Positions 42,540 through 58,731 of a DNA stretch of 64,000 bases are shown piece after piece (within the stretch, counting starts at the first letter, position 1; the number at the start of each line of letters is the position of its first letter). The notes under the pieces were generated by a model. The model saw nothing but the letters and a program-made list of their open reading frames with translations, had not been told where the DNA came from and ran no database searches. The stretch covers positions 1,426,001-1,490,000 of the forward strand of contig NZ_CP047349.1 in assembly GCF_011045835.1 (NCBI RefSeq). The letters run 5' to 3'. This DNA is from Proteus terrae subsp. cibarius. Its GTDB lineage: Bacteria; Pseudomonadota; Gammaproteobacteria; Enterobacterales; Enterobacteriaceae. The position numbers and the translations under genes were made by a program.

Positions 42540-42662
42540 TTATCATCACCAAAGGGCGCAAGACATAATGCTGATTGTGCCTGGTTGGGTAGTATCAACT
42601 GCGCATAATCCCTCTGTATTATGTTAAGTTGCCGGAGGCTATTTACCCTGCGGTGATGATAA
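42540..42662. repeat. Structured palindromic repeat (MITE-like), copy 1
   Basis: A 123-base element with perfect 11-base terminal inverted repeats TTATCATCACC and GGTGATGATAA, plus inner inverted pairs (AGGGCG.../CCCT, ACATAAT/ATTATGT). It begins 3 bases after cdiI. A shorter related copy is at 46254. It has no coding capacity; it could be a miniature transposable element or a REP-type structured repeat. Confidence 0.6.
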
Positions 42663-42713
42663 CCTTTTGATTCCTTTCTTAATAAAAATATAAAACTGTT
42701 GTGCTTTAATAAA

Positions 42714-43892
42714 TGTGGACACTTTGATAAAGGAATATATTCACCTTTAAAATAAGATGTCGATATGAAACGAAAAACCTCAAAGCAGTACACTGAAAGC
42801 TTTCGAAAAGAAGCCGTTAATTTAATCCTCGAGCAAGGGCACACCGTTCCTCAAGCCGCCAAAGCACTCGATATTCCCACTAAACTCCTTTATTCATGGC
42901 GTAAACGATACGAGAAGGACGGTCAGCCTGGAGCGCTCACCCTTACTGAGCGTCAAGAGTTACTTGCTCTTCGTAAAGAAAATAAGTTATTGAAAATGGA
43001 GAAGAAATCCTAAAAAGGCGAGCGCCTTCTTTGCGAAGGAACTGCTCTAAGGTACTGGTTTGTTCAAGAGCACCTAACGCAATATCCGGTTAAGCATTTA
43101 TGTCGCGTGATGAAGCTCGGGCGTTCAACGTTTTATGCTTGGCTCAAACGACCAAGAAGGGCGTTGGATGAGCAGACTCACGCGTTGCATCAAACGGCTA
43201 AAGCGCGAGCCGAAACAGCTTAGGTTACCGTATGTTAGGCGCTCAATTACGCAAAGAAGGGTATGCCATCAGTGATTATCGAACGCGAAAGTTGATGTGC
43301 CTGTTAGGACTGGTTGTTAAGCAACGAAAACGGCATAGGAATCCCCCTAAAAATAAAGTGATAGCCACAGCGGATAACTTGCTCAATCAGAACTTTAATC
43401 CATTGGCACCGAACGAAGTCTGGGCGGGGGATATCACCTACTTAAAAACCCCAGAAGGTTGGTTGTATCTGGCGATAGTGATGGATTTATATTCTTGTGT
43501 ATCGTGGGCTGGCATCTGTCGACATGTATTGATAATACATTGATAAATAAGGGCTTAATGAAAGCTTATAACCTACGTTATCCCTCAAAAGGCTGTGCTT
43601 TTCACAGTGATAGAGGGAGTCAATATACGGGAAGCCATTATCAAGCTTTATTGAAAAGCTATGATATGCGCCCAAGCCAAGGAGATGTCGGAGCCTGTTG
43701 GGATAATGCGGTTGTTGAACGTTTTTTTGGGAGTTTAAAGCATGATTGGTTATTTAAAAAAACGTATTCAACACGAGAGGAAATGAAGCAGGATGTGTTG
43801 GATTACCTGCATTATTATAACGTAATGCGCTTACACACGGCGAATCGCAAATTATCGCCAGTGGAGTATGAAAACTCCTTCAAAAAAGTGTC
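42714..43892 (+). mobile_element. Decayed IS3-family insertion sequence
   Basis: Left end TGTGGACACTTTGATAAAG (42714 on) and a right end resembling its inverse (AAAAAAGTGTC near 43892) enclose remnants of orfA and orfB. Several frameshifts and deletions inactivate it. The right end appears to lack its last bases and abuts a truncated toxin gene, so the element or a later deletion removed the front of that cassette. Confidence 0.8.
42765..43050 (+). pseudogene. IS3-family orfA, frameshifted
   Basis: Encodes a helix-turn-helix transposase front half (MKRKTSKQYTESFRKEAV, AAKALDIPTKLLYSW) and a leucine-zipper-like KENKLLKMEK. The frame ends early at 43013; restoring two lost bases gives the family ending (ASAFFAKELL) up to the stop at 43050. 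Confidence 0.75.
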
Positions 43893-43896
43893 TTAA
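43049..43896 (+). pseudogene. IS3-family orfB (DDE integrase domain), broken
   Basis: The translation in pieces reads RYWFVQEHLTQYPV, YRMLGAQLRKEGY-like, PNEVWAGDITYLKTPEGWLYLAIVMD, HSDRGSQYTGSHY, DVGACWDNAVVERFFGSLKHDW and YYNVMRLHTANRKLSP, the core of an IS3 transposase. Catalytic Asp, Asp and Glu motifs are recognisable but lie in different frames: breaks occur near 43220 and 43500. Confidence 0.8.
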
Positions 43897-44362
43897 ATTT
43901 ATTGTGCAGAACAGTAATGAGAATAATAAAAAGCAGACACCAGAACGAGATAATAAAGAGTCTCTGAATAACATAGAACCAGGAAAACAAGTCTCTGGTA
44001 GTAAAGGAAATTGGAATAAAGAATTAAATAAAAGTGATAGAAATGGTTACCAGCAATGTAAAGTTGGTAAATGTGGTGAAACTGGGGATGATGGTGGACA
44101 TTTAATCGCGACAAGATTTTCAGGACTAGGTGAAAAAATAAACATGGTGCCAATGAATTCTAATTTAAATCGTAGTGAATGGAAAAAAATGGAGAATATA
44201 TGGGCAAGATCGTTAAAAGATAATAAAGAGACAAGCGTTAAGATAGAGCCTGTATATATAAGGAATAGTGATAGGCCAAGTAGTATTAACGTTACATACA
44301 AAATAGGAAATGAGCCCCCTATAGAAAGGACGTTTATTAATGACTCTAAAGGTGAAAAATGA
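43868..44362 (+). pseudogene. Module 1: orphan CdiA toxin end, DNA/RNA non-specific endonuclease
   Basis: The frame starts inside the IS remnant; CdiA-type sequence begins about 43893, so the VENN front is missing. From about residue 60 it reads GYQQCKVGKCGETGDDGGHL, then NMVPMNSNLNRSEWKKMENIWARSL, then VTYKIGNEPPIERTF. This is the Endonuclease_NS-type toxin fold with the catalytic DGGH motif and the conserved Asn-rich metal site. It degrades DNA and RNA in target cells when delivered. Here it can be neither secreted nor delivered as it stands. The next gene overlaps its stop and is the matching YezG-like immunity gene. Confidence 0.8.
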
Positions 44363-44691
44363 AAACAGATCAGGAAATATATAATAATATAGGTACGTTA
44401 TTGTATAACATAGCTCCTAATGAGGCTAAAAAGATAAATATGAGGGCTAATTTATCAGTTGAAGGTAATACATGTGAATATGAATATGATTATCTTGACA
44501 ATGAAAATTCATTGAAATGGTTTACAGCTGGTGGTGTTGCAAATACACATATGCTCCACAATTTGGTTGAACTGAGAAATTATTATATAGAACATAATTT
44601 AACTAATGATCTACCTATTTGGAAAGGCTGTGAAGTAACTTTAGATTTAGAAACAATGAAAATTAATATAGATTTTAAGTACGAAAATTAA
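44359..44691 (+). CDS. Module 1 immunity protein, YezG-like
   Basis: A 110-residue acidic protein whose ATG overlaps the toxin stop (ATGA). IYNNIGTLLYNIAP, EGNTCEYEYDY, KWFTAGG, LVELRNYYIEHNL and WKGCEVTLDLETMKINIDF resemble the YezG/DUF600 immunity family, known partners of YeeF-type DGGH nucleases. Frame intact, so protection may persist although the toxin is headless. Confidence 0.8.
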   Translation: MKTDQEIYNNIGTLLYNIAPNEAKKINMRANLSVEGNTCEYEYDYLDNENSLKWFTAGGVANTHMLHNLVELRNYYIEHNLTNDLPIWKGCEVTLDLETMKINIDFKYEN

Positions 44692-44712
44692 ATTACAATC
44701 TCGAACGCTATT

Positions 44713-44733
44713 GTGGATCCCAAAGGGATCCAC
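44713..44733. repeat. Cassette-boundary hairpin
   Basis: GTGGATCCC/GGGATCCAC perfect 9-base stem with a 3-base loop directly after the module 1 immunity gene. Related hairpins close other cassettes. It may serve as a terminator, though the T-run is weak. Confidence 0.5.
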
Positions 44734-45969
44734 CTTGTGACTTTACTCTCCTTCAGCTTCTTACCAAGAATAGTCAGTTGGGAGTGGACAGTTGAAAGTG
44801 ATATTCAGCGCACGATAGCGCACGGATTACTCAATGCAGGCCTTGCGTTGGCAAAAGGTGAGAATGCAGTAGTGCAAGCTTCTGGCGCAATGACAGGGGA
44901 AACAGTGGGTATTTTATCGCACTCATTTTATGGCAAAACCCCCGAAGAGCTCACCGAAACTGAAAAGCAGAATATAAGTGCATGGGCAACGTTAACTTCA
45001 GGGATTGTCGGCGGTTTAATCAGCGATAATAGTGCAGGTGTTGCCAATGCCGCCCAAGCTGGGAAAGTGGTGGTTGAGAATAATTATTTAACAGCCAAAC
45101 AAATAACTTCATGGCTTGAAAAGTATTATCTTGCTTCTACAGATGAGGAAAAGAAACATTTAGTTGAATTAGGAAATAATGTCGATGCAGAACAACAGCA
45201 AAAAGCGATAGAAACTAGGATCACTAAAGAACATTTGGTTCAACAACAAGATGAATTAATTTTACTTATTCAATCAGCAGATTGTAATGCTCATTGCAAA
45301 TCAATTGCTGAATATAGTATCAGAAAACTGGATCCTATCATTGAAAATTATAGTGAATTACAGCGTGGTAATAATATTCCACGAGCCGTTGTTGCAACGA
45401 CAGCATTAGGTTTACCTATAATGAGTAAGGCTATTAGCCCTTATGTAGCGAGTTGGTTAGGTAGCACTACTGTTGCTAGCCGTGTAGTAGGTGTAACAAC
45501 TACGGGCACAGCAAATTTAGCCATGCAGGTGCATAATATTAACACAGACCCAAAAGCGAGCTTTAGTTATGCAAGCTTTGGTTCTTCTTTGTTAACAGGA
45601 GGAATAACATCAGGAATGGGGTATTGGGGAACGCTCACAACCAATACAACTGGTGCGGGTGTTTCAAGTTTAATTGATGGAGAATCACCTTGGGTCTCAA
45701 TGGGAGGCGCATTAGTTGGTTCAACATTCGGCTATGGAGGCACAAAATGGTTAACTCATCATTTTGATAATAAATTTAATCCTTGGTCTAGCGGGCTTAA
45801 AGATCGCCCATTAGTTGTAATGCCATCAATTACAGCTCCGCCGAGTGTATCGCCAATGCCTGGAATTATAGGTAGCCTTCTTGGATCCGCGGGTTCAGAA
45901 TATTTAAATAAAGAGACTAGCGAAGTATTGAAGAAAATCACAATAGAGAACGAAAATGAAAGTAATTAA
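44713..45969 (+). CDS. Module 2: orphan CdiA C-terminus with membrane toxin
   Basis: The open frame has a GTG start in the boundary repeat, but homology to cdiA begins at 44791 (VESDIQRTIAHGLLNAG) and runs to VENN. Then comes an entry-type region (LTAKQITSWLEKYYLAS, CNAHCKSIAEYSIRKLDPIIENY) and a glycine/alanine-rich hydrophobic end (VVATTALGLPIMS, SLLTGGITSGMGYWG, MGGALVGSTFGYGG, PGIIGSLLGSAGS). Glycine-zipper-like segments plus a membrane immunity protein next door suggest a pore-forming or depolarising toxin, comparable to E. coli EC93 CdiA, whose immunity protein is also a small membrane protein. No secretion parts, so silent unless recombined into cdiA. The frame is intact. Confidence 0.75.
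   Translation: MDPKGIHLVTLLSFSFLPRIVSWEWTVESDIQRTIAHGLLNAGLALAKGENAVVQASGAMTGETVGILSHSFYGKTPEELTETEKQNISAWATLTSGIVGGLISDNSAGVANAAQAGKVVVENNYLTAKQITSWLEKYYLASTDEEKKHLVELGNNVDAEQQQKAIETRITKEHLVQQQDELILLIQSADCNAHCKSIAEYSIRKLDPIIENYSELQRGNNIPRAVVATTALGLPIMSKAISPYVASWLGSTTVASRVVGVTTTGTANLAMQVHNINTDPKASFSYASFGSSLLTGGITSGMGYWGTLTTNTTGAGVSSLIDGESPWVSMGGALVGSTFGYGGTKWLTHHFDNKFNPWSSGLKDRPLVVMPSITAPPSVSPMPGIIGSLLGSAGSEYLNKETSEVLKKITIENENESN
44735..44790 (-). pseudogene. Degenerate SymE-like fragment
   Basis: The minus strand reads SQLTILGKKLKESKVTR, resembling the SPKLTIRGKWL core of the clearer SymE remnants further right. Very short and uncertain on its own; the recurring position supports it. Confidence 0.35.
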
Positions 45970-46183
45970 TTATTTTTTAATATTATTTTTTTGTTATTTT
46001 GTACTGGTTTTTATTACATTCTTATTGCTTGGTTTTATTGTTGAATTTATTCATTATATGAAATTAGGTATTTTTTACATTGATATATTTTTTTTAAAAA
46101 AACCGATTATTTTTGGGGGAGTGTTTGGTTTGAGTTTTAGTGGTATTCATCTATTTGTGAATTATTGGGAAAATAAACATTGA
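45956..46183 (+). CDS. Module 2 immunity protein, two-helix membrane type
   Basis: A 75-residue protein overlapping the toxin end by 14 bases. A long hydrophobic N-terminal helix (NYFLILFFCYFVLVFITFLL) and a glycine-rich second helix (PIIFGGVFGLSFSGIHLFVNY) make it an inner-membrane protein. Its layout matches the immunity proteins of modules 3, 4, 6, 9 and 10, all ending G-x-G-rich helix, aromatic, then a short Lys-rich tail. It probably blocks the membrane toxin in the bilayer. Confidence 0.7.
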   Translation: MKVINYFLILFFCYFVLVFITFLLLGFIVEFIHYMKLGIFYIDIFFLKKPIIFGGVFGLSFSGIHLFVNYWENKH

Positions 46184-46457: not shown

Positions 46458-46745
46458 ATGAGCAATCTCTATCAAACCCTTTCAGAAAATAACAATAAGC
46501 CTATAAGTTATGGATGGAATCAATATAAATTGTGGAAAACAGGAGGTTGGGATCCTAAATATAACTCTAAATTGCAAGGTGGAGCTATAAAAGGATTATA
46601 TGGACTTTCGAAAGATATGAAACCCTATCCTTTGCCTGGTATTTTGGGAAATATGGGAGCTGCTGGTATAACTGAAACAACAAATACTCTGATACAAGAG
46701 GAAATTAAAGAATTTAAGGAAAAAATGGATGAGAATAAAAAATAA
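46458..46745 (+). pseudogene. Module 3: membrane-toxin tail fragment
   Basis: Begins with a short scrap of cdiA (NLYQTLSENNN, compare NLYQALSETND) fused to a 70-residue tail KPISYGWNQYKLWKTGG, LQGGAIKGLYGLS, PLPGILGNMGAAGITETTN. The PLPGILG segment lines up with PMPGIIG in module 2, so this is the extreme C terminus of another membrane toxin variant without its body. Confidence 0.6.
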
Positions 46746-46767
46746 TTAATTAATATTCGTGGTTATA

Positions 46768-46967
46768 ATGAGCATTGTATGTGGGCTTGCCATGTTTCTG
46801 ATAATTATAATATCTTTTTTATTGGTAAATGCCTAATTTGATGGTTTGTAAGTGGAGAATTTACTTTTTCACTTGAGTATGTAGAAAAGGCTTTCAGAGT
46901 AGGTTTGATCACAGGCCCAATAGTTGGAATAGGGATGTGGTTTATAGAATATAAGTTACGTAGATGA
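46768..46967 (+). pseudogene. Module 3 immunity gene, frameshifted
   Basis: The first frame encodes MSIVCGLAMFLIIIISFLLVNA and stops. The next frame encodes EFTFSLEYVEKAFRVGLITG and PIVGIGMWFIEYKLRR, which lines up with the second helix of the other two-helix immunity proteins. A single frame change inactivates it. Confidence 0.6.
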
Positions 46968-46971
46968 TGTT

Positions 46972-47006
46972 AAGATCCCAGCTCAAAATGTTGGGATCTT
47001 TCTTTT
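46972..47006 (+). terminator. Cassette-boundary terminator, module 3
   Basis: AAGATCCCA/TGGGATCTT perfect 9-base stem, 11-base loop, then TCTTTT, directly after the immunity remnant. Confidence 0.6.
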
Positions 47007-47120
47007 GGCTATCACTCCGTCTCAATAACCTTAGCTTGTTAGCCTGTGGTACTCATCAATTCTTTCAGAAACCAACGATAACGTTGCTGAGCGTGATATT
47101 CAAAATCACCTCTTCCAGCA

Positions 47121-47411
47121 ATGGGGGCAATCACGACAGGAGGTGGAGCATTAATGGGGTATGGATTAGGTAATTTTATAGTAAAACCTGTAACTAATTG
47201 GGCTGGTAAAATAATAACAAAAGGCAATAATCCCAGATTTAATGAAGTGTTGAGAAAATATTCAGAGTCAGAGGTTAAGGGAAGGTCTTATATTATGCAG
47301 GAAGTATCCGAAAGTAAAATTTCTTCTGGAGCAGGTAACTTAAGTAGTAGTGGTATATCTGAATTAGGTGTTTTTTATATACAAAAAAAGGTGAAGAGGA
47401 GAAAAAAGAGT
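47121..47411 (+). pseudogene. Module 4: membrane-toxin tail fragment, frameshifted
   Basis: A scrap of cdiA (47052-47119, ending HLFQQ) joins out of frame to MGAITTGGGALMGYGLGNFI, TNWAGKIITKGNNPRFNEVL, SEVKGRSYIMQEVSESKIS and SSGISELGVFYIQKK. This is the C-terminal portion of a membrane toxin: GGGALMGYGLG parallels MGGALVGSTFGYG in module 2. Near the end it has seven A (47383-47389) where module 6 has eight, so the frame slips into a longer false ORF. The immunity gene follows at once. Confidence 0.6.
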
Positions 47412-47643
47412 GAAAATAATTTTTCTTCTTATAGTGTTAATGATTATGTTTATATTTGTTTCATTTATAAGTGTAATGATTTTTTATTTTTTAGTGGAGG
47501 TGTTTTTTTATTTTTATTCAGATATCTCAATTTCATTTAAAGTTAATGAAATAAAAAAAGCATTAAAAGTAAGTATTGGTGGAGGTGCAAGTATGGGGTT
47601 AGGTATTGGAATGTTATACATAAAAGAAAATAAACTAAAATGA
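47410..47643 (+). CDS. Module 4 immunity protein, two-helix membrane type
   Basis: A 77-residue membrane protein with a GTG start overlapping the expected toxin stop and GAGG upstream. Helix 1 is MKIIFLLIVLMIMFIFVSFI and onward; helix 2 is SIGGGASMGLGIGMLY, then IKENKLK. Differs from the module 6 protein at one residue (Ser for Ile). Confidence 0.7.
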   Translation: MKIIFLLIVLMIMFIFVSFISVMIFYFLVEVFFYFYSDISISFKVNEIKKALKVSIGGGASMGLGIGMLYIKENKLK

Positions 47644-47708: not shown

Positions 47709-48230
47709 ATGAATATAAGATTAATCGAATTTCTACACTCGGTTTATCCAGAGTTACCTATTGATGTTAGCTATATGCGAGGTTACTCAGTAGATGAAAT
47801 TCAGAAAATTGAGCGTTTATATGATATTGAAGTAAAAGATCAGTTATATGATTTTTTAACGAGTATAGGGCGTTGTAGTGGTGGTCTTTTTGGCGATGAT
47901 CCTCTTCTTTTTTATAGAAATCAAAAAACAATAAGAGGAAGTATATTGATGCAATCAGGAATGAGAGAGGAACTCTCTGCTATTCAACAATATGATTTAT
48001 TAGATAAAAAACCATTTTTTATTGCAGTGGAAAGTTATACTCAATACTTTTTTGTTTTAACAGCATCAGTTACACCTAATATCATTTATCAATATGATGA
48101 GAATGAAGAAATTATAGAAGCTACTGAATGGGATCTAAATAGTTATTTAAGGCATATAGTTAATGCTTATACTCGTCACTATGATCTGAATGTGCCTTTT
48201 GATCGACATGGTGAGCTTATCATTATTTAA
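47709..48230 (+). CDS. Module 4 second immunity protein, SUKH (SMI1/KNR4)-like
   Basis: A 173-residue soluble protein: IRLIEFLHSVYPELPIDVSY, IERLYDIEVKDQLYDFLTSI, GRCSGGLFGDDPLLFYR, FFIAVESYTQYFFVLTAS, YDENEEIIEATEWDLNSYLR. The fold-type pattern (L-Y-x-F-L-x-x-x-G, FFI-A, tryptophan-led C-terminal helix) fits SUKH immunity proteins, which guard against several nuclease toxins. Its toxin partner is not present next to it. Copies at 50920 and 58212 share its ends. Confidence 0.65.
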   Translation: MNIRLIEFLHSVYPELPIDVSYMRGYSVDEIQKIERLYDIEVKDQLYDFLTSIGRCSGGLFGDDPLLFYRNQKTIRGSILMQSGMREELSAIQQYDLLDKKPFFIAVESYTQYFFVLTASVTPNIIYQYDENEEIIEATEWDLNSYLRHIVNAYTRHYDLNVPFDRHGELIII

Positions 48231-48236: not shown

Positions 48237-48262
48237 AAGATCCCAACTTATAATGGGATCTT
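48237..48262. repeat. Cassette-boundary hairpin, module 4
   Basis: AAGATCCCA/TGGGATCTT 9-base stem with an 8-base loop right after the SUKH gene; identical in sequence to the one at 51448. Confidence 0.55.
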
Positions 48263-48273: not shown

Positions 48274-48405
48274 TCACTTCCTCTTAGCCATTCGGATAAT
48301 CAACCGTCCGGTTTGGCGAGTGAGAGTGATGTTGCTACCCATCGTAAACCCTAACTTACTCAGCCACTTACCTCTGATAGTCAGTTTTGGACTTGCAATT
48401 ATGGA
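48274..48405 (-). pseudogene. SymE-like 3' remnant, copy A
   Basis: The minus strand encodes 43 residues: SIIASPKLTIRGKWLSKLGF then TMGSNITLTRQTGRLIIRMA, KRK, stop. The pattern of LTIRG-W-L---GF--G----V/L-------L-I matches SymE-family toxins (SOS-induced type I toxins with an AbrB-like fold). An in-frame TAG lies immediately upstream, so the front is lost. It lies antisense to the cassettes. Confidence 0.65.
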
Positions 48406-48611
48406 CTAATTTTCTGGTGCTAGTTTTTCTAATCTAAATTACGACAATCTTTATCAAGCCCTTTTTAGAAACCAACGATAACGTTACTGAGCGTGATATT
48501 CAAAATCACCTCTTCCAGCAAGCCTTACAGGGTTATACTAACCAATCCGATTTTGGCACGGGGGGTAAATACACCCGCGCAATCCAAGCCATCACCGCAT
48601 TTACGCAAGGT

Positions 48612-49883
48612 GTGATGGGTAACAACATTGTTACCGCGATTGCTAATGGTTCCGCGCCTTATCTTGCTAATGAAGTGAAAAACCAAATTCAAGGTAACAG
48701 TGTTGAAAGTGATATTCAGCGCACGATAGCGCACGGATTACTCAATGCAGGTCTTGCGTTGGCAAAAGGTGAGAATGCAGTAGTGCAAGCTTCTGGCGCA
48801 ATGACAGGCGAAACGGTGGGTATTTTATCGCACTCACTTTATGGCAAAACCCCCGAAGAGCTCACCGAAACTGAAAAGCAGAATATAAGTGCATGGGCAA
48901 CGTTAACTTCAGGGATTGTCGGCGGTTTAATCAGTGATAATAGCACCGGAGTTGCCAATGCTGCCCAAGCTGGGAAAGTGGTGGTTGAGAATAATTGGTT
49001 GAGCACCAGTCAACTAGAAAATTTTGCACATAAAGCAAGAACTTGTGTTGGTGAAGAATGTCAGCAAGTTATTCGTGATATGGTTGATGCTAATATTCGG
49101 CAACAGGAAGAGATAAAGCAAATTTGTTCAACCTCACCAGAGCAGTGTAAACAGCAGTATGGATATTTAGTTGAACAATGGAATGCTTTCGATACAGCAA
49201 TAAAACATCTTGCAGCAGATAAATCGTTGCCTGATGATTTTCGTGATTATTTGCCTGCAGTGTATATGTTGAGTATGGATGCGACAGGGATTACAGTCGA
49301 ACATCAGTGGGCTAAACGATTTGAGGCAATAGGGCTTGAACCAGAAACAGCCGGTTTGATAGCGATGGCACTTCCCGGAATGATTAATGGTGGAAGTGGT
49401 AAAGGTAATCGTGGAACAACAGATAAACGAATCAATAACAGCAAGTTAGAATCAGAAAAAAATGCTCTAAATAGAATTGGCGAGAATTCAAACAATACTA
49501 AAAATTTTGGTCAGAAAGAAGCTAACTCAGTTTATAATAAACAGCTGATTATAAATGCAGAAAAAATATCAACGGCGAAGCCTGGACAACAAACAGCAGT
49601 ACCAAGGGATCTTAATGAGCAAACATTTTGGAAAGAGGTTCAAGCTAATCCAATTCTGGGAAGTAAATTACTAAATATGAATAAAGATCCTCGTTTCCCT
49701 ACTAGCGCCGGTTTTCAAAAAATGGAAGCAAAACATAAACTCCCAGATGGACAAACAATAACTATACATTATCAGTTTAATTCAACGACTGGTAAGGCTT
49801 ATGATATGAAAATCACGTCACCTCAGAGGATGCAACAAGATCCAAAACAAGTGGTGGATACAATAAAGGATAATGTTAAATGA
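48612..49883 (+). CDS. Module 5: orphan CdiA C-terminus with unknown toxin
   Basis: The cdiA-like copy starts about 48440, with a frameshift near 48470 (an extra T), and is open from 48612. After VENN comes an entry domain (WLSTSQLENFAHKARTCVGE, VEQWNAFDTAIKHLAADKSL, LEPETAGLIAMALPGMI) nearly identical to module 8. The toxin end differs: FWKEVQANPILGSKLLNMN, FPTSAGFQKMEAKHKLPDGQ, YDMKITSPQRMQQDPK. I do not recognise the toxin family; a small RNase-type fold is possible. It overlaps its immunity gene by four bases. Confidence 0.75.
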   Translation: MMGNNIVTAIANGSAPYLANEVKNQIQGNSVESDIQRTIAHGLLNAGLALAKGENAVVQASGAMTGETVGILSHSLYGKTPEELTETEKQNISAWATLTSGIVGGLISDNSTGVANAAQAGKVVVENNWLSTSQLENFAHKARTCVGEECQQVIRDMVDANIRQQEEIKQICSTSPEQCKQQYGYLVEQWNAFDTAIKHLAADKSLPDDFRDYLPAVYMLSMDATGITVEHQWAKRFEAIGLEPETAGLIAMALPGMINGGSGKGNRGTTDKRINNSKLESEKNALNRIGENSNNTKNFGQKEANSVYNKQLIINAEKISTAKPGQQTAVPRDLNEQTFWKEVQANPILGSKLLNMNKDPRFPTSAGFQKMEAKHKLPDGQTITIHYQFNSTTGKAYDMKITSPQRMQQDPKQVVDTIKDNVK

Positions 49884-50197
49884 AGATACAAGAATCAGAT
49901 GGCTCTATTGTTGATATTTTTGCTATTTATTGGTTTGATGATGAAACATATTTTTATGGAATGCCTATTAATTATGGCGGATTGCAAACATATAAAGCTG
50001 ATGAAGTAAAAATCATTGATAATCAATTAGATTTTAAAACAGTCTTTTTTTCAAATGATGATGCAAAGAGCGTCCATCATTGGGCTTTAATCGAAGAATC
50101 ATTATTAGATGACTTGCTTGAATTAGATGACACCGCCTATAAAAGATTTTTAGAGATATTAAAATCTGAAGGTCAGTTAGACGATAATTTTTATTGA
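49880..50197 (+). CDS. Module 5 immunity protein
   Basis: A 105-residue acidic soluble protein, ATG overlapping the toxin stop. Sequence (YWFDDETYFYGMPINYGGLQ, ESLLDDLLELDDTAYKRFLE) of no family I can name. Role inferred from position and overlap. Confidence 0.7.
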   Translation: MKIQESDGSIVDIFAIYWFDDETYFYGMPINYGGLQTYKADEVKIIDNQLDFKTVFFSNDDAKSVHHWALIEESLLDDLLELDDTAYKRFLEILKSEGQLDDNFY

Positions 50198-50297: not shown

Positions 50298-50624
50298 TTG
50301 ACGAATACAATAAATGATGAAAGTGCAACAATGGGGGCAATCACGACAGGAGGTGGAGCATTAATGGGGCATGGATTAGGTAATTTTATAGTAAAACCTG
50401 TAACTAATTGGGTTGGTAAAATAATAACAAAAGGCAATAATCCCGGATTTAATGAAGTGTTGAGAAAATATTCAGAGTTAGAGGTTAAGGGAAGGTCTTA
50501 TATTATGCAGGAAGTATCCGAAAGTAAAATTTCTTCTGGAGCAGGTAACTTAAGTAGTAGTGGTATATCTGAATTAGGTGTTTTTTATATACAAAAAAAA
50601 GGTGAAGAGGAGAAAAAAGAGTGA
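50298..50624 (+). pseudogene. Module 6: membrane-toxin tail fragment
   Basis: Nearly the same as module 4 but with a longer front (AAAGALTNTINDESATMGAI) and eight A in the late run, so the frame ends properly in GEEEKKE, overlapping the immunity start (GTGA). No VENN front: a decapitated tail. The apparent TTG start at 50298 is not likely real. Confidence 0.6.
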
Positions 50625-50854
50625 AAATAATTTTTCTTCTTATAGTGTTAATGATTATGTTTATATTTGTTTCATTTATAAGTGTAATGATTTTTTATTT
50701 TTTAGTGGAGGTGTTTTTTTATTTTTATTCAGATATCTCAATTTCATTTAAAGTTAATGAAATAAAAAAAGCATTAAAAGTAAGTATTGGTGGAGGTGCA
50801 ATTATGGGGTTAGGTATTGGAATGTTATACATAAAAGAAAATAAACTAAAATGA
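50621..50854 (+). CDS. Module 6 immunity protein, two-helix membrane type
   Basis: A 77-residue membrane protein, all but identical to the module 4 protein, GTG start overlapping the toxin tail stop. Confidence 0.7.
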   Translation: MKIIFLLIVLMIMFIFVSFISVMIFYFLVEVFFYFYSDISISFKVNEIKKALKVSIGGGAIMGLGIGMLYIKENKLK

Positions 50855-51616: not shown

Positions 51617-51825
51617 CTAATTTTCTGGTGCTAGTTTTTCTAATCTAAATTACGACAATCTTTATCAAGCCCTTTTTAGAAACCAACGATAACGTTACTG
51701 AGCGTGATATTCAAAATCACCTCTTCCAGCAAGCCTTACAGGATTATACCAACCAATCCGACTTTGGTACGGGGGGTAAATACACCCGCGCAATCCAAGC
51801 CATCACCGCATTTACGCAAGGTGTC

Positions 51826-53250
51826 ATGGGCAACAATATTGTTACTGCGATTGCTAATGGTTCCGCGCCTTATCTTGCCAATGAAGTGAAAAACCAAATT
51901 CAAGGCAACAGTGTTGAAAGTGATATTCAGCGCACGATAGCGCACGGATTACTCAATGCAGGTCTTGCGTTGGCAAAAGGTGAGAATGCAGTAGTGCAAG
52001 CTTCTGGCGCAATGACAGGCGAAACGGTGGGTATTTTATCGCACTCACTTTATGGCAAAACCCCCGAAGAGCTGACTGAGACTGAAAAGCAGGATATAAG
52101 TGCATGGGCAACGTTAACTTCTGGGATTGTCGGCGGTTTAATCAGTGATAATAGCACAGGCGTTGCCAATGCTGCCCAAGCAGGGAAAGTGGTGGTTGAG
52201 AATAATTATTTAAATAACTCAGACCATCGCCAAAAAACATCGTTGGAGCTTAAAGAGCGTCAAGGAAATATAACTGAAGTTGAACAACTGAAACTGGCTG
52301 AGTTACGGATTAAAGATATAAATACAACACAAGCTGTGCTTGATGCTTGTGTTGGCGGTACCTCACCAGAATGTACCGCAGCCAGAAAAGATGCATTTAA
52401 GGCGATAGACACCTATGTAAATCTAACGTATCAAAACCCAAAAACAGCGCAAGCAGGTTATCAAGAAATCGAGCGTTTGTTGAACTAGACATCATCGGAA
52501 GCACAGCAAGCGTTTAATCTGTTAGAGTCTTATACGGAAGCGTTTAAAAACTTTGGTTATCCCGATAACGAAGCGCGTGTTCGAGCCGGGATGTATGTTG
52601 GTTCTATTTATGCCTTTGGCGGAGTATCAGCGGTTGTAAATTCAGGCATATTGGTTAAGCAATTTGGGAAAGATATTGCAAAACCTAGAGTTAAGCTAGA
52701 GCTGATACCACCAAAAGGCTCAAATAATAGTGCTGAATTAGGCGCTGGTAGTAAATGGGCTGTAGATAAAAACGGGGTATATAGTCCCAAAGAAATTGAA
52801 AGTATTACAAAGGTAGAGAAAGGTGATACTAAATACAATGCGGATTTGTTACCTTATAAAGATATTGTTGGAAAAGTTGATCCTAATACAAATTATATTG
52901 ATATTCTCTCTCCAGAGGCGAAGCTGCATATACTATATGGAGAAAGCCCAACTCAAGGTGGCCACTTGTTCCCTGGTAATCCAGGGAAAACAACTTTTCC
53001 ATCTAATTGGCCAGCAGAAAAAGTAATACATGAAATTGGTGATATAGCGACATCACCAACGACTCAGTGGTATGCACAATCAGGAACTGGCGGTTTATAT
53101 ACAAAAGCGGGAAGACCAGCTAGATGGGTGGCATGGGAAACTCGTGATGGAGTACGTATGAGGGTAATTTACGAGCCAGCAAATGGTAAAGTAGTTACTG
53201 CTTTTCCTGATAAAACATCGCAACCAGGTTCTCTGAAACCAATAAAATGA
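51826..53250 (+). pseudogene. Module 7: orphan CdiA C-terminus with EndoU nuclease, amber stop
   Basis: cdiA-like sequence from about 51650 to VENN, an entry domain (LKERQGNITEVEQLKLAELR, ACVGGTSPECTAARKDAF), then an in-frame TAG at 52486-52488. The same frame goes on open for 254 codons: YTEAFKNFGYPDNEARVRAG and the EndoU domain LHILYGESPTQGGHLFPG, GKTTFPSNWPAEKVIHEIGD, ATSP, WVAWETRDGVRMRVIYEP, GKVVTAFPD. Two His and a late Lys/Tyr region fit the EndoU RNase active site. One base change makes the toxin unexpressable as a whole. MafI-like immunity follows after 13 bases. Confidence 0.82.
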
Positions 53251-53263: not shown

Positions 53264-53521
53264 ATGGGTGTTAATCAGAAAATACAATCTTTTGGTAACA
53301 AATTAAAAGGGCGTTTAGATGCATCATTAGTTGACTTTGATTTAGAGTACATAAATCATTCAGAAAATATTTTAGCATTTGAAACATTATGTGATCATAT
53401 AGCAGATTATGGTGTAGAAATAACAAAAGATGAGTATAACCAAGTCATAGAGATAGTGAATGAACTCAATCTTGAATTAGATGAAAGATATTTATATATA
53501 AAACCAGAAAAAAGTAGTTAA
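53264..53521 (+). CDS. Module 7 immunity protein, MafI-like
   Basis: An 85-residue acidic helical protein: INHSENILAFETLCDHIADY, then GVEITKDEYNQVIEIVNELN. This matches the MafI family, known partners of EndoU-type MafB toxins, which agrees with the toxin next to it. Frame intact. Confidence 0.78.
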   Translation: MGVNQKIQSFGNKLKGRLDASLVDFDLEYINHSENILAFETLCDHIADYGVEITKDEYNQVIEIVNELNLELDERYLYIKPEKSS

Positions 53522-53535: not shown

Positions 53536-53562
53536 TGGATCCCAAGGTTCAGTTGGGATCCA
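53536..53562. repeat. Cassette-boundary hairpin, module 7
   Basis: TGGATCCCAA/TTGGGATCCA perfect 10-base stem with a 7-base loop just after the MafI-like gene; related to the one at 44713. Confidence 0.5.
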
Positions 53563-53574
53563 TCTTGTGACTTT

Positions 53575-53645: not shown

Positions 53646-53698
53646 TGGGGCTAATTTCAATATCTATATTCGCTTTAAGCTGACGAGATATTTGAATT

Positions 53699-55209
53699 AG
53701 TGGGCGAAATTGGGGCGCAGGTTATCGACTTAGCAACCACGGTGGACACTATTCGTGGTACGAACCAAGCGAAAGCTGATTCAAAACTCGATAATCTTTC
53801 TGATACCGCTTACGACAATCTCTATCAAGCCCTTTCAGAAACTAACGATAACGTTACTGAGCGTGATATTCAAAATCACCTCTTCCAGCAAGCCTTACAG
53901 GATTATACTAACCAATCCGATTTTGGCACGGGGTAAATACACCCACGCAATCCAAGCCATCACCGCATTTACGCAAGGTGTCATGGGCAACAATATTGTT
54001 ACCGCGATTGCTAATGGTTCCGCGCCTTATCTTGCCAACGAAGTGAAAAACCAAATTCAAGGTAACAGTGTTGAAAGTGATATTCAGCGCATGATAGCGC
54101 ACGGCATTACTGAATGCAGGCCTTGCATTGGCAAAAGGCGAGAATGCCTTAGTGCAAGCTTCTGGCGCAATGACAGGGGAAACAGTGGGTATTTTATCGC
54201 ACTCACTTTATGGCAAAACCCCCGAAGAACTCACCGAAACTGAAAAGCAGAATATAAGTGCATGGGCAACGTTAACTTCCGGTATTGTCGGCGGTTTAAT
54301 CAGCGATAATAGCACAGGCGTTGCCAATGCCGCCCAAGCTGGGAAAGTGGTGGTTGAGAATAATTGGTTGAGCACCAATCAACTAGAAAATTTTGCGCAT
54401 AAAGCAAGAACTTGTGTCGGTGAAGAATGTCAGCAAGTTATTCGTGATATGGTTGATGCCAATATTCGGCAACAGGAAGAGATAAAGCAAATCTGTTCAA
54501 CCTCACCAGAGCAGTGTAAACAGCAGTATGGATATTTAGTTGAACAATGGAATGCTTTCGATACAGCAATAAAACATCTTGCAGCAGATAAATCGTTGCC
54601 TGATGATTTTCGTGATTATTTGCCTGCAGTGTATATGTTGAGTATGGATGCGACAGGGATTACAGTCGAACATCAGTGGGCTAAACGATTAGAGGCAATG
54701 GGGCTTGAACCAGAAACAGCCGGTTTGATAGCGATGGCACTTCCCGGAATGATTAATAGTGGAAGTGGTAAAGGAACAACTAATAAGCAAACGAGTATTC
54801 CTGTTGTAAAACAACTGAATGTAAGTAAAGATAAATTTATTTCTCCAGAAAATCCGGGAATTACACAATCGAGAGTGAATGTCGCAAATGTAACATTTGA
54901 TAATGGTAAAATAAGAGGGTTTGACTATGCGATGGGTAAACATGGTATTGATGCTAGTGTGCCTAATAAAAGCCGTTTTACTGTTACAAATAATGAGGTT
55001 AAAGAGTATTACAACGACCTGATATAGTTAATAAAACTGTTTATAATCCAATTCAAATAGGCGGAAAAGTTGAAACTGATAAATTTGTGAGGCAGGTTGA
55101 TACAGGTAAGTCTATTGGTGTTGATCAAAGTGGAAAAGGTACGTCTGTTATTACCATTATTACCGATAAAAAAGGTAACTTAATCAATGTATTCCCTGGC
55201 TCATTATAA
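53699..55209 (+). pseudogene. Module 8: orphan CdiA C-terminus, several frameshifts
   Basis: The longest cdiA-like copy (matching cdiA from about 40507). It is broken by loss of two G near 53930 and an extra base near 54105, then open from 54128 through VENN and the module 5-type entry domain. The toxin end NVANVTFDNGKIRGFDYAMG, KHGIDASVPNKSRFTVTN breaks again near 55010 and continues in the next frame as DIVNKTVYNPIQIGGKVETD, GKSIGVDQSGKGTSVITIIT, GNLINVFPGSL. Toxin family not recognised; a small cytotoxic RNase fold is possible. Confidence 0.7.
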
Positions 55210-55223: not shown

Positions 55224-55625
55224 ATGCCATTAATTAGCTTAATAAAATCATCTAATGGTGATAATGAGAATGAAGTATTATACCGAACCTTTCATGAACG
55301 CAATGCTCGTTACCTAGAAAGGGAAAATCAATCGGATAAATTTAAGATAATTTGGAATATTGATGACGCATCACCATCTGTTTTTATGAACTCTGATGAT
55401 TTAGTGTCACTTCTAGAAGATCTTGAAATTCTGGTGCAAGAAGCATGCAAGAATAATGATCATGAGATACTCAACCATTTGAAAGAAATAGCAGTTTTAT
55501 GCAAATTATGTTTATGGAATGAAAGTTTATTTTATTTGGAATTTTCTCCTTGGGGAGTTAGTCTTGATAGTTACCCAACCAAGATACCGGAGCAATATAG
55601 ATTTAATATTTCTACTATAGATTAA
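55224..55625 (+). CDS. Module 8 immunity protein
   Basis: A 133-residue acidic, mostly helical soluble protein (DDLVSLLEDLEILVQEACKN, HLKEIAVLCKLCLWNESLFY) starting 14 bases after the toxin's restored stop. No family named. Frame intact although the toxin is broken. Confidence 0.65.
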   Translation: MPLISLIKSSNGDNENEVLYRTFHERNARYLERENQSDKFKIIWNIDDASPSVFMNSDDLVSLLEDLEILVQEACKNNDHEILNHLKEIAVLCKLCLWNESLFYLEFSPWGVSLDSYPTKIPEQYRFNISTID

Positions 55626-55837: not shown

Positions 55838-57256
55838 ACAATCTCTATCAAGCCCTTTCAGAAACTAACGATAACGTTACTGAACGTGATATTCAGAATC
55901 ACCTCTTCCAGCAAGCCTTACAGGATTATACTAACCAATCCGACTTTGGTACGGGCGGTAAATATACCCGTGCTATCCAAGCCATTACCGCATTTACGCA
56001 AGGTGTAATGGGCAACAATATTGTTACCGCGATTGCTAATGGTTCCGCCCCTTATCTTGCTAATGAAGTGAAAAACCAAATTCAAGGTAACAGTGTTGAA
56101 AGTGATATTCAGCGCACGATAGCGCACGGATTACTCAATGCAGGCCTTGCGTTGGCAAAAGGTGAGAATGCAGTAGTACAAGCTTCTGGCGCAATGACAG
56201 GGGAAACAGTGGGTATTTTATCGCACTCACTTTATGGCAAAACCCCCGAAGAACTCACCGAGACTGAAAAGCAGAATATAAATGCATGGGCAACGTTAAC
56301 TTCTGGGATTGTCGGTGGTTTAATCAGTGATAATAGCACAGGCGTTGCCAATGCCGCCCAAGCTGGGAAAGTGGTGGTTGAGAATAATTATTTAACAGCC
56401 AAACAAATAACTTCATGGCTTGAAAAGTATTATCTTGCTTCTACAGATGAGGAAAAAAAACATTTAGTTGAATTAGGAAATAATGTCGATGCAGAACAAC
56501 AGCAAAAAGCGATAGAAACTAGGATCACTAAAGAGCATTTGGTTCAACAACAAGATGAATTAATTTTACTTATTCAATCAGCAGATTGTAATGTTCATTG
56601 CAAATCAATTGCTGAATATAGTATCAGAAAACTGGATCCTATCATTGAAAATTATAGTGAATTACAGCGTGGTAATAATATTCCACGAGCCGTTGTTGCA
56701 ACGACAGCATTAGGTTTACCTATAATGAGTAAGGCTATTAGCCCTTATGTAGCGAGTTGGTTAGGTAGCACTACTGTTGCTAGCCGTGTGGTAGGTGTAA
56801 CAACTACGGGCACAGCAAATTTAGCCATGCAGGTGCATAATATTAACACAGACCCAAAAGCGAGCTTTAGTTATGCAAGCTTTGGTTTTTCTTTGTTAAC
56901 AGGAAGAATAACATCAGGAATGGGGTATTGGAGAACGCTCACAACCAATACTACTGGGTGCGGGTATTTCAAGTTTAATTGATGGAGAATCACCTTGGGT
57001 CTCAATGGGAGGCGCATTAGTTGGTTCAACATTCGGCTATGGAAGTACAAAATGGTTAACTCATCATTTTGATAATAAATTTAATCCTTGGTCTAGCGGG
57101 CTTAAAGATCGCCCATTAGTTGTAATGCCATCAATTACAGCTCCGCCGAGAGTATCAGTAGTACCAAGTATTGTTGGAAGTACAATTGGAGCTATTGGTT
57201 CCGAAGGTGCGAATAAAATAATTACAGAAGAGTTAAAATCAAAGGATGAGAAATGA
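55838..57256 (+). pseudogene. Module 9: orphan CdiA C-terminus with membrane toxin, frameshifted
   Basis: The cdiA-like copy runs in frame from 55838 (first ATG 56008) through VENN. The toxin body is nearly identical to module 2, with changes such as Gly to Arg in TGRITSGMGYW. An extra G near 56956 shifts the frame at 56982; it resumes as VSMGGALVG-type sequence at 57005. After SITAPPRVS it diverges fully from module 2 (VVPSIVGSTIGAIGSEGANK). Its immunity gene differs too. Confidence 0.75.
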
Positions 57257-57483
57257 AAATATTTATATACTTTTTACTTTGGTCTTTGAGTATGTGTGTA
57301 ACTGTTTTTTTGACAATAATATTAATTAAACTTCTAGTTAAACTAATGTTATATTTTGAAAAAAACTCGTTTGTTTGGGAGTTAAATGATTTTATTGATG
57401 CATTAAAAATAGGAGGAGTAATGGGATTGTTTTTAGGAGCCGTAATTTGTTTAGTTAACTATTTAGAATATAAAAGGCACTAA
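57253..57483 (+). CDS. Module 9 immunity protein, two-helix membrane type
   Basis: A 76-residue membrane protein overlapping the toxin stop (ATGA). Helix 1 FIYFLLWSLSMCVTVFLTII; helix 2 LKIGGVMGLFLGAVICLVNY, then LEYKRH. Same plan as the other five but with its own sequence, matching the module 9 toxin tail. Confidence 0.72.
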   Translation: MKIFIYFLLWSLSMCVTVFLTIILIKLLVKLMLYFEKNSFVWELNDFIDALKIGGVMGLFLGAVICLVNYLEYKRH

Positions 57484-57534
57484 TGTGATTTTACAGAATG
57501 GCTAATAAAATTAATTCTTAAATTACAGGGGGTA

Positions 57535-57861
57535 TTGATAGATATAACTATTAAGCCCCACAGAGTACATCAATCCTTAACTCCTGAAATTAAAATTGAA
57601 GGATATTATGGAAAAACCAATATAACAGGGAAAGTGGGCAGATTAGGTAATTTTATAGTAAAACCTGTAACTAATTGGGTTGGTAAAATAATAACAAAAG
57701 GCAATAATCCCGGATTTAATGAAGTGTTGAGAAAATATTCAGAGTCAGAGGTTAAGGGAAAGTCTTATATTATGCAGGAAGTATCCGAAATTAGAATTCC
57801 TTCTTGAGTAGGTAATATTGGTGATAGCGGGGCTGCGGAAGTTAGTGCAAGTTATATGTAA
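57535..57861 (+). pseudogene. Module 10: membrane-toxin tail fragment with opal stop
   Basis: Shares LGNFIVKPVTNWVGKIITKG and YIMQEVSE with modules 4 and 6, but a Gly codon has become TGA at 57805-57807. The frame continues VGNIGDSGAAEVSASYM to 57861. The front is unrelated sequence, so it is truncated at both levels. Confidence 0.6.
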
Positions 57862-57890
57862 GACATAATTAATGAAACTGGAGAATAACA

Positions 57891-58133
57891 ATGAAAAGAA
57901 TATTTCATATTATTGTACTTATTATAGCATTAATGATTTTATTTACTTTATCATTATTGATTGTTGCAATAGTTACTTATATTAGCATAGATTTATTCTT
58001 TTATTTTTATGCAGAAAGACCTATTTTATTTAGTTTAATTGAATTTAAACGAGCGTTAAGAATTAGCATAGGCGGAGGTATACCCGCAGGGATTGGCTTT
58101 GGAATTCTCTATATAAAGGAAAATAAAATATAA
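57891..58133 (+). CDS. Module 10 immunity protein, two-helix membrane type
   Basis: An 80-residue membrane protein with a good ribosome site (GGAG). Helix 1 IFHIIVLIIALMILFTLSLL; helix 2 ISIGGGIPAGIGFGILY, then IKENKI. Clearly related to the module 4 and 6 proteins at the second helix, different at the first. Confidence 0.7.
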   Translation: MKRIFHIIVLIIALMILFTLSLLIVAIVTYISIDLFFYFYAERPILFSLIEFKRALRISIGGGIPAGIGFGILYIKENKI

Positions 58134-58211
58134 TGATTTTACACTATTTGGTAAAAGTTTTATTTTTAATATATCACCTTGAGTTTAGCTTTAGACGAAA
58201 TTAATAATACT

Positions 58212-58731
58212 ATGAATATAAAATTAATCGAATTTTTACACTCAGTTTATCCAGAATTACCTATTGATGTTAGCTATATGCGAGGTTATTCTGATGATGA
58301 AATAAAAAAATCGAACGTTTATATGATATCGAAGTGAAAGATCAGTTATATGATTTTTTAACGAGTATAGGCGTTGTAGTGGTGGTCTTTTTGGCGATGA
58401 TCCTCTTCTTTTTTATAGAAATCAAAAAACAATAAGAGGAAGTATATTGATGCAATCAGGAATGAGAGAGGAACTCTCTGCTATTCAACAATATGATTTA
58501 TTAGATAAAAAACCATTTTTTATTGCAGTGGAAAGTTATACTCAATACTTTTTTGTTTTAACAGCATCAGTTACACCTAATATCATTTATCAATATGATG
58601 AGAATGAAGAAATAGTGGAAGCTACTGATTGGGATCTAAAAAATTATTTGAGATATATAGTTAATGTTTATACTCGAAATTACGACGTAAAGACATCTTT
58701 CGATCAACATGGTGAACTAATTATTATTTAA
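58212..58731 (+). pseudogene. Module 10 SUKH-like immunity gene, two single-base deletions
   Basis: 520 bases against 522 in the intact copies. One base is lost near 58305 and one G near 58371. The later part (MQSGMREELSAIQQYDLLDK) matches the 47709 copy rather than 50920, and the last 30 codons diverge from both. Decaying third copy. Confidence 0.7.

What the first reader, a model, noticed from the sequence alone, without database searches (positions are those of the whole stretch)
42540..58731. Ten-module orphan cdiA-CT/cdiI array behind a complete CDI locus
Copies of the cdiA pretoxin segment up to VENN recur at 44791, 48440, 51650, 53699 and 55838, each leading to a different end and its own immunity gene. 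Four further modules are toxin tails plus immunity genes, and one is an IS-beheaded nuclease with its immunity gene. Orphan modules are known in other CDI loci, but this number and the mixture of types is striking. Most toxins are broken or lack a start while at least ten immunity genes are open, as if selection keeps protection rather than attack.
Basis: partly seen in the sequence, partly recalled or inferred. Interest (0 to 1): 0.85.

Follow-up and report, generated by a model that had tools for sequence, protein, structure and literature searches.

The report
Proteus archive of spare immunity genes
Behind a bacterial contact-killing system sits a row of ten discarded toxin ends with their antidote genes; most antidotes are still readable while most toxins are broken, a known kind of gene archive that here seems to be kept mainly for protection and to swap very small pieces.

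Summary
A complete cdiB-cdiA-cdiI locus is followed by ten orphan cdiA-CT/cdiI modules (42.6-58.7 kb), five with a pretoxin-VENN copy. Two of ten toxin ends are intact; 11 of 13 immunity genes are open. The kind is known: E. coli EC869 has eleven orphan pairs, and 14 of 20 Proteus genomes match the pretoxin (2-10 matches each).

Retained protection has moderate support. Of 54 orphan immunity loci in 12 genomes, 39 pair an open immunity gene with no intact toxin frame; none is the reverse. In matched modules pN/pS is 0.32 for immunity, 0.48 for toxin tails. The SUKH genes here belong to a deaminase CdiA toxin not found in this genome: SUKH in 15 of 20 genomes, toxin in 7, always directly before a SUKH gene; SUKH omega in toxin-less genomes 0.10. 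But toxins, too, have omega below 1, and some tests are not significant.

New detail: ionophore-type modules are mosaics whose toxin body is shared while the last ~35 residues switch together with the small membrane immunity gene (tip-immunity r 0.92 and 0.69; body-immunity near 0). Expression, fold and protection are untested.

The parts
26977..28698 (+). cdiB-type outer-membrane transporter gene
   Evidence: 573-aa ORF directly before cdiA; family assigned by reading the sequence and its place, not by a profile search
28778..42046 (+). cdiA, 4422 aa, VENN at the pretoxin end; deployed toxin end CT0 from 41174
   Evidence: first 138 residues of CT0 match PDB chain 8ssk_A, E 5.7e-47; CT0 90% identical to the main CT of G003
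42043..42537 (+). cdiI of the main locus
   Evidence: 79% to the cdiI of G003
42712..43897 (+). degenerate IS3-family element that beheads module M1 (edges approximate, by eye)
   Evidence: ORFs 42765-43013, 43232-43543, 43459-43896; rve/HTH_21 Pfam hits
43895..44362 (+). M1 toxin remnant, Endonuclea_NS_2
   Evidence: PF13930 E 1.6e-29; truncated at its 5' side
44359..44691 (+). M1 immunity, YezG-like
   Evidence: PF04634 E 5e-5; omega 0.09 over 4 copies
44787..45969 (+). M2: partial pretoxin + intact ionophore-type CT (T2), no start codon of its own seen
   Evidence: PT-VENN E 2.2e-16; GxxxGxxxG at residue 208
45956..46183 (+). M2 immunity, 75 aa, hydrophobic
   Evidence: GRAVY 1.30
46458..46745 (+). 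M3 toxin tail
   Evidence: homologues at six further places in relatives
46740..46968 (+). M3 membrane immunity gene, frame broken
   Evidence: open homologues of 66-69 aa in G003, G014 and G016
46972..47000 (+). terminator-like stem-loop after M3
   Evidence: 12 such sites found, 10.7 expected by chance, so weak on its own
47062..47408 (+). M4: 60 nt of pretoxin joined to an ionophore tail
   Evidence: D10/D5 repeats, T4 family
47410..47643 (+). M4 immunity, 77 aa, hydrophobic; same type as the immunity of the deployed CdiA of G012
47709..48230 (+). SUKH immunity gene (deaminase type); its toxin was not found in this genome
   Evidence: SUKH_6 E 0.0038, below cut-off; neighbours in relatives; toxin search empty
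48237..48262 (+). terminator-like stem-loop (copy at 51448-51473)
48277..48405 (-). antisense SymE remnant, headless (copies 51488-51616 and 55677-55799)
   Evidence: PF08845 profile positions 20-53 of 54, E 7e-10, 3.7e-10 and 7.1e-9; the 3 SymE matches of the genome at E <= 0.01 lie in this array
48440..49883 (+). M5: pretoxin + intact CT (entry domain MID5 + toxin domain T5)
   Evidence: T5 relatives end frames of 2791-4667 aa in five genomes of other genera
49880..50197 (+). M5 immunity, 105 aa
50298..50624 (+). M6 ionophore tail (copy of M4, 3.2 kb further on)
50621..50854 (+). M6 immunity, 77 aa
50920..51441 (+). second SUKH immunity gene, interior differs from the M4 copy
51650..53250 (+). 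M7: pretoxin + EndoU toxin, interrupted by one stop
   Evidence: PT-VENN, DUF6862, EndoU_bacteria E 4.6e-12
53264..53521 (+). M7 immunity, 85 aa
   Evidence: 99% in G019
53697..55209 (+). M8: pretoxin and CT with frameshifts; same entry domain as M5, other toxin domain
55224..55625 (+). M8 immunity by position, 133 aa
   Evidence: open frame; no relative in 246 sampled family genomes or in the 20 fetched Proteus loci
55838..57256 (+). M9: pretoxin + ionophore CT, frameshifted; body 97% to M2, different tip
57253..57483 (+). M9 immunity, 76 aa, hydrophobic
57593..57866 (+). M10 ionophore tail with a stop shared by four species
57891..58133 (+). M10 immunity, 80 aa, hydrophobic
   Evidence: open in the four species that share the toxin stop
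58211..58731 (+). third SUKH gene, frameshifted

Best explanation
This is an orphan cdiA-CT/cdiI array in which displaced toxin ends are kept chiefly for their immunity genes. New toxin/immunity pairs entered at a stretch shared with cdiA and pushed older pairs downstream (inferred). Detached toxin ends then decay; immunity genes stay open and would protect the cell from relatives that still deploy those toxins (protection inferred). Recombination works at three nested edges: at VENN (whole CT), at the entry-domain/toxin-domain junction (M5 against M8), and, in the ionophore-type modules, about 35 residues before the toxin's end, so that the tip travels with its small membrane immunity gene (mosaics shown, recognition of the tip by the immunity protein inferred).
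For: Anatomy. Asymmetry: 54 orphan immunity loci in the window and 20 fetched relative loci: 8 with open immunity and an open toxin frame through VENN, 39 with open immunity only, 0 the reverse, 7 both broken (its own count of 9 includes one 42-aa frame, L069:5494, which I moved to 'no intact toxin'). Corrected for gene length the open small immunity genes (36 of 39) exceed the expectation drawn from toxin loss (24.6 of 39 for a 290-codon CT, P 3.5e-5); the direction holds in 6 of 6 families. Matched modules, 28 of 30 pairs used: pN/pS immunity 0.32 (0.26-0.38), toxin tail 0.48 (0.41-0.56). SUKH: toxin in 7 of 20 genomes, each next to a SUKH gene; SUKH in 15 of 20; no toxin match in the window's genome; omega 0.098, LRT 230, in 7 of the 10 fetched SUKH copies of toxin-less genomes. 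The main CdiA of G012 (4367-aa frame) ends in the T4 toxin, with an immunity 97% identical to window 50621. Mosaics at nucleotide level. Tip-immunity coupling: and, in other genera, 68.
Against: Toxin segments also have omega below 1 (0.11-0.43), so toxins were, or are, constrained too. Point lesions per kb: small immunity 0.20, SUKH 0.93, toxin 0.83; all immunity against toxin P 0.17, small immunity alone P 0.028. For I10 behind the stop shared by four species omega is 0.57, not different from 1 (LRT 0.6); I2 and I10 overall are not significant. Of the 8 genomes with SUKH and no toxin, 4 (G000, G003, G014, G016) have an open copy of at least 66% identity, 3 (G004, G011, G019) only copies of 50-58% that may answer another toxin, and G018 only broken pieces; on the strict four the sign test would not be significant. 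Several of these are drafts, and a fast-changing toxin is easier to miss. Copies in related species are not independent, and the 54 loci were found by immunity homology, which under-samples broken immunity genes; for SUKH the gene directly upstream is often another immunity gene. No promoter signal above chance; no expression or protection data.
Confidence: 0.65

Rival explanations
1. Silent toxin reserve: modules are kept because homologous recombination at the pretoxin can load an orphan toxin onto cdiA; immunity is retained as part of the unit.
For: Five orphan pretoxin copies differing from each other and from cdiA by 4.7% on average, omega 0.10 on pretoxin over 40 rows, copies of five related genomes intermixed in the tree (window's six copies need 6 changes, shuffled mean 5.8), M2 and M5 toxin ends intact, toxin omega below 1. 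Proposed in print as one of two models (passages of PMC4927057).
Against: 8 of 10 toxin ends in the window are broken or truncated; 39 of 54 loci keep immunity without an intact toxin frame; a single crossover would also delete the main cdiI and everything between, as Poole 2011 points out.
Confidence: 0.4
2. Fossil record only: displaced pairs decay neutrally and immunity genes look intact because they are short and recent.
For: Immunity genes are 75-173 codons against about 290 for a CT; several families have few changes; I10 omega 0.57 is compatible with neutrality; SUKH has as many lesions per kb as toxins.
Against: Length-corrected excess of open small immunity genes; omega 0.09-0.28 with significant LRT for I1, I5, I6, I9 and SUKH; SUKH pN/pS 0.08-0.19 in three comparisons at pS 0.21-0.33 between genomes without the toxin (a fourth, with the copy at 50920, gives 0.33 at pS 0.44, and one very close pair with 5 changes gives 1.0).
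Confidence: 0.17
3. The tip-immunity coupling is only physical linkage: any crossover in the toxin body drags along everything downstream.
For: Tip and immunity gene are adjacent, so they must often move together. M9 and the G014 module share most of the tip (0.80) although their immunity proteins are 43% alike.
Against: Breaks fall at about the same place before the tip in different families and genera, homology resumes after the immunity gene in M4/M10, and tip class and immunity class disagree in only 1 of 28 and 3 of 91 pairs, at cut-offs that I chose.
Confidence: 0.25
4. The array is an assembly artefact of repeats.
For: Long near-identical repeats, for instance M4 and M6 3.2 kb apart.
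Against: The copies have their own lesions and neighbours; same junction spacing in two other assemblies; pretoxin matches in 14 of 20 congeners.
Confidence: 0.03

Closest known systems
Orphan cdiA-CT/cdiI modules behind cdiBAI (Poole et al. 2011, PMC3150448; passages read)
   Same: Detached CT fragments, generally without a start, each followed by a cdiI gene, in tandem; EC869 has eleven pairs; immunity-repertoire idea already proposed there.
   Different: Here most toxin ends are broken or tails only, and the retention of immunity is tested with lesion counts, pN/pS and an immunity family whose toxin is missing.
Alpha-helical CDI ionophores, type 10 (Halvorsen et al. 2024, PMC11630599; abstract, passages, section 8 and first part of the discussion read)
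   Same: CT with glycine zipper; immunity proteins of 72-100 residues, very hydrophobic; similar toxins paired with divergent immunity; polymorphism in the helices alpha1, alpha4, alpha5 predicted to contact CdiI.
   Different: Here mainly the last ~35 residues differ between types, body about 90% alike in T2, and the tip moves with the immunity gene as a recombining piece in an orphan array; no structure was obtained to place the tip on alpha5.
P. mirabilis BL95 CDI cluster (PMC11278526; passages read)
   Same: Proteus, orphan pairs o1 and o2, symE in opposite orientation inside the cluster, displacement from the main position.
   Different: Two orphan pairs on an ICE against ten here; SymE described there as not part of the CDI system, here headless copies recur at module edges.
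Polyimmunity loci and SUKH immunity of BURPS668_1122 deaminases (PMC3482391; passages read); rAID orphan immunity arrays (PMC12247911; abstract read)
   Same: Immunity genes without toxin, SUKH type, thought to shield against toxins of others.
   Different: Here the SUKH genes sit inside a CDI array, and a deploying CdiA is found in a congener (G009).

Membership tests
Orphan cdiA-CT/cdiI array | Complete cdiB-cdiA-cdiI locus upstream, same orientation | tested here: met
   (cdiB by reading and place)
Orphan cdiA-CT/cdiI array | CT fragments beginning in or near the pretoxin/VENN region, detached from cdiA, each followed by an immunity gene | tested here: met
   PT-VENN in five orphan modules; four tails and the IS-cut module lack VENN, as some known fragments do
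Orphan cdiA-CT/cdiI array | Orphan CT or immunity found at the main position in relatives | tested here: met
   T4/I6 at the main cdiA of G012; SUKH behind the main CdiA of G009; T5 family in long frames of other genera. Not shown for M1, M3, M7 and M8; M2/M9-type full-length ends at contig edges (L061, L070) could be main or orphan
Orphan cdiA-CT/cdiI array | Orphan immunity expressed and protective | not testable with these tools
   needs RNA and competition assays
Alpha-helical CDI ionophore with two-helix immunity (M2, M3, M4, M6, M9, M10) | GxxxGxxxG zipper in the toxin | tested here: met
   T2 and T4 yes; not in the short M3 tail
Alpha-helical CDI ionophore with two-helix immunity (M2, M3, M4, M6, M9, M10) | Immunity 72-100 aa and very hydrophobic | tested here: met
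   75-80 aa, GRAVY 1.14-1.34, for five genes; M3 immunity broken; two helices not predicted here
Alpha-helical CDI ionophore with two-helix immunity (M2, M3, M4, M6, M9, M10) | Five-helix bundle fold | not tested
Alpha-helical CDI ionophore with two-helix immunity (M2, M3, M4, M6, M9, M10) | Dissipates membrane potential | not testable with these tools
   bench assay
SUKH immunity of Toxin-deaminase (PF14424) | SUKH profile | tested here: inconclusive
   SUKH_6 E 0.0038 and 0.0074, 17-18 bits against cut-off 27
SUKH immunity of Toxin-deaminase (PF14424) | Gene directly behind a deaminase CdiA toxin in relatives | tested here: met
   7 of 7 toxin matches in the genus lie next to a SUKH match; G009 toxin PF14424 E 3.5e-6, 27.7 bits against cut-off 29.6, G008 toxin no PF14424 hit

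The most novel reading that the evidence does not exclude
CDI ionophores evolve new kin-recognition types by exchanging a very small cassette, the toxin's last ~35 residues plus its small membrane immunity gene, on a constant toxin body; orphan arrays such as this one store such tip/immunity cassettes, some cut down to little more than tip and immunity gene, as a protective library and as donors for new types.
Probability: 0.45. Interest if true: 0.68.

Novelty: new member of a known kind. Interest (0 to 1): 0.5.

Why it matters
Whether orphan CDI modules are kept as shields, as spare weapons or as debris has been discussed since 2011. The Proteus arrays give a comparative test bed: the same families recur in different order and state of decay in about a dozen genomes, one immunity family survives where its toxin is not found, and a sister species deploys a toxin whose antidote is an orphan here. 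The tip/immunity mosaics suggest how new incompatible types could arise from tiny exchanges.

Tried and rejected
Novelty by number: rejected (EC869 eleven pairs; up to 15 orphan immunity genes in P. aeruginosa; up to ten pretoxin matches in a congener). Strict concerted evolution of pretoxin copies inside a genome: rejected, copies of G000, G012, G014, G015 and G016 intermix (mean difference within G000 0.047, to these genomes 0.054-0.071). Promoters for single immunity genes: no excess over shuffles (59 found, 67.7 expected). Immunity-only selection from codon models alone: not supported, toxins too have omega below 1. The first codon-model run of I6 stayed at its start values and was repeated on the non-main rows of that family. 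M8 immunity: no relative in 246 sampled genomes. PDB sequence searches of T5, SUKH, EndoU, I7 and T2: nothing; the deaminase search gave only unconvincing hits. NCBIfam: no hit above cut-off. In one search several element frames were wrong and the map was redone. Rows dropped: in the tip analysis two T2 rows cut at contig ends and one T4 row without tip; L057 T4, whose 'immunity' was miscalled, was and left out; two of 30 matched pairs with under 40 toxin codons (two of the 28 kept involve the main copy of G012, and M4/M6 enters twice); one of 26 hits without an adjoining immunity ORF. Other-genus loci: 18 regions from 17 of the 37 genomes that matched. Literature: eight searches; in their listings I saw no paper on tip/immunity exchange or on a selection test of orphan cdiI genes, but of these I opened only PMC3150448, PMC4927057, PMC9086364, PMC11278526, PMC11630599, PMC12247911 and PMC3482391, in the parts stated (PMC9086364 and PMC4927057: passages).

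Full report
What is there. The window is part of a 4.12-Mb genome whose named pretoxin relatives are Proteus species except one Budvicia (17 and 1 of 18 loci). A cdiB-type gene (26977-28698), a 4422-aa cdiA (28778-42046) and cdiI (42043-42537) are followed by ten orphan modules up to 58731, closed by an IS3-family transposase on the other strand. Five orphan copies of the pretoxin segment each run to VENN and then into different ends, M2 and M9 being alike for most of their length. The toxins are an NS_2 nuclease cut by a broken IS (M1), EndoU (M7), an unnamed domain whose relatives end frames of 2791-4667 aa in five genomes of other genera (M5), an unnamed domain (M8), and six ends of the ionophore type (M2, M3, M4, M6, M9, M10).

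State. Complete and open toxin ends: M2 and M5, 2 of 10. Truncated: M1, M3, M4, M6, M10. Interrupted: M7 (one stop), M8 and M9 (frameshifts). Immunity genes open: 11 of 13; broken are the M3 membrane immunity and the M10 SUKH gene.

How unusual. Of 20 Proteus genomes, the window's included, 14 match the pretoxin, with 2-10 matches each; a copy can be split into two matches, and a few matches belong to other, distant loci. The window's seven matches are its six copies, one being split. EC869 has eleven orphan pairs (passages of PMC3150448). The array is a good example, not a record.

Is protection kept? Four tests. (1) Over the window and 20 fetched loci of 12 further genomes, 54 orphan immunity loci (in 12 of these 13 genomes) were classified by whether the immunity gene is open and whether an open frame runs from VENN to it: 8 both, 39 immunity only, 0 toxin only, 7 neither (after moving one 42-aa frame that the script had counted as toxin). 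Of the 39 small immunity genes 36 are open and 8 have an intact toxin; given the toxin loss per codon, 24.6 open ones would be expected for a 290-codon CT (P 3.5e-5) and 26.7 for 350 codons (P 3.9e-4), assuming independence, which related copies do not have. By family the direction is the same in 6 of 6. In the window alone 9 of 10 cognate immunity genes are open (P 0.041). (2) Stops and frameshifts per kb: small immunity 0.20, toxin 0.83 (P 0.028), but SUKH 0.93, and all immunity against toxin P 0.17. (3) Matched modules: pN/pS immunity 0.32 (0.26-0.38), toxin tail 0.48 (0.41-0.56), 28 pairs sharing lineages. Codon models: I1 0.09, I5 0.19, I9 0.28, SUKH 0.10, I6 0.20, all significant; I2 0.45 and I10 0.44 not; toxin segments 0.11-0.43, all significant. 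(4) SUKH. In G009 the deployed CdiA (3457-aa frame) ends in a deaminase-like toxin (PF14424 E 3.5e-6, just under its cut-off) directly followed by a SUKH gene 73% identical to that at 47709. The toxin is found in 7 of 20 genomes, each time next to a SUKH gene; SUKH in 15 of 20; 8 genomes, the window's among them, have SUKH and no toxin match, none the reverse (sign test P 0.008). Of the eight, four have an open copy of at least 66% identity, three only copies of 50-58%, and one only broken pieces. Between toxin-less genomes SUKH pN/pS is 0.08-0.19 in three comparisons at pS 0.21-0.33, 0.33 in a fourth at pS 0.44, and 1.0 in one very close pair with five changes; omega over seven such copies (of ten; two broken and one of 50% left out) is 0.098 (LRT 230). 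When each lineage lost the toxin is not known, so part of the constraint may predate the loss; drafts may lack it by gaps, and a faster-changing toxin may be missed more often.

A result against this: the M10-type toxin has the same in-frame stop in four species (window, G012, G015, G016), and its immunity gene is open in all four, yet omega there is 0.57 and not different from 1. The sample is small.

Link to deployed toxins. The main CdiA of G012 ends in the T4 toxin, and its immunity is 97% identical to the orphan immunity at 50621.

Three nested edges (all, 60-nt windows). At VENN any CT may follow. M5 and M8 share pretoxin (88-98%) and entry domain (95-100% up to 49358) and then differ wholly. 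M2 and M9 are 90-100% alike up to 45805 and then differ through tip and immunity gene. M4 and M10 are 90-98% alike in the toxin body (47188-47308), fall to 48-70% over tip and immunity, return to 85-100% in SUKH up to 48122 and drift apart at its end. The SUKH interior of M4 is 100% identical to that of M10 but 62-85% to that of M6, within a duplication otherwise 97-100% identical from 47160 on, apart from the edges of that interior: best read as gene conversion or a similar exchange.

Tip and immunity. In T2 (8 modules) identity of the immunity proteins goes with the tip (Mantel r 0.92, reached by none of 5000 permutations) and not with the body (r -0.16); in T4 (15 modules, one of them a main CdiA) r 0.69 (P 0.0002) and -0.03. 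In T2 the difference between immunity types starts near residue 256 of 294 (7 modules). Classes disagree in 1 of 28 and 3 of 91 pairs; in the one T2 case, M9 and G014, most of the tip is shared although the immunity proteins are 43% alike. In 25 modules from 17 genomes of other genera, the 76 pairs with similar body give tip-immunity r 0.89 and body-immunity 0.65; two adjacent modules of one genome (L094) have body 99%, tip 41%, immunity 40%. Halvorsen 2024 reports variation in helices alpha1, alpha4 and alpha5, predicted to contact CdiI, and cognate-only protection with some partial cross-resistance; what is added here is the sharp edge before the tip and its joint exchange with the immunity gene. 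That the tip is alpha5 is my inference: the structure job did not finish.

Punctuation. Headless SymE genes lie antisense between modules (48277, 51488, 55677); the three SymE matches of the genome are here, and G012, G015 and G001 have such matches in their arrays too, G012 and G001 also elsewhere. Stem-loops with the core GATCCC/GGGATC follow M3, M4 and M6, though terminator-like sites as a class are not above chance. A role as 3' homology for module exchange is a guess.

Verdict.

Noticed in passing
window 60313-63255 (-): 980-aa autotransporter with a PAP2 domain in its N-terminal part and a passenger repeat.
   Followed up: no
window 48277-48405, 51488-51616, 55677-55799 (-): Antisense SymE genes missing their start, before three modules; a further degraded one seems, by eye, to lie at 53560-53698.
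   Followed up: partly
window 47869-48168 / 51080-51379 / 58370-58669: Interior of the SUKH genes is a mosaic: M4 equals M10, not its own duplicate M6.
   Followed up: partly
window 18863-26548 (+): Fimbria-like cluster (usher, chaperones, pilins by eye) directly upstream of cdiB.
   Followed up: no
window 41174-41587: First part of the deployed toxin end matches PDB chain 8ssk_A, whose molecule label 'Fimbrial usher protein StbD' looks odd.
   Followed up: no
L094 1-12001 (G233): Array of five ionophore modules in another genus with the same tip/immunity switching.
   Followed up: partly
G015:C38:66423-67444 and G008:C1:1227286-1228307: Deaminase toxin plus SUKH gene, in frames of 1828 and 817 aa; in G015 on another contig than the main CDI array.
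   Followed up: no
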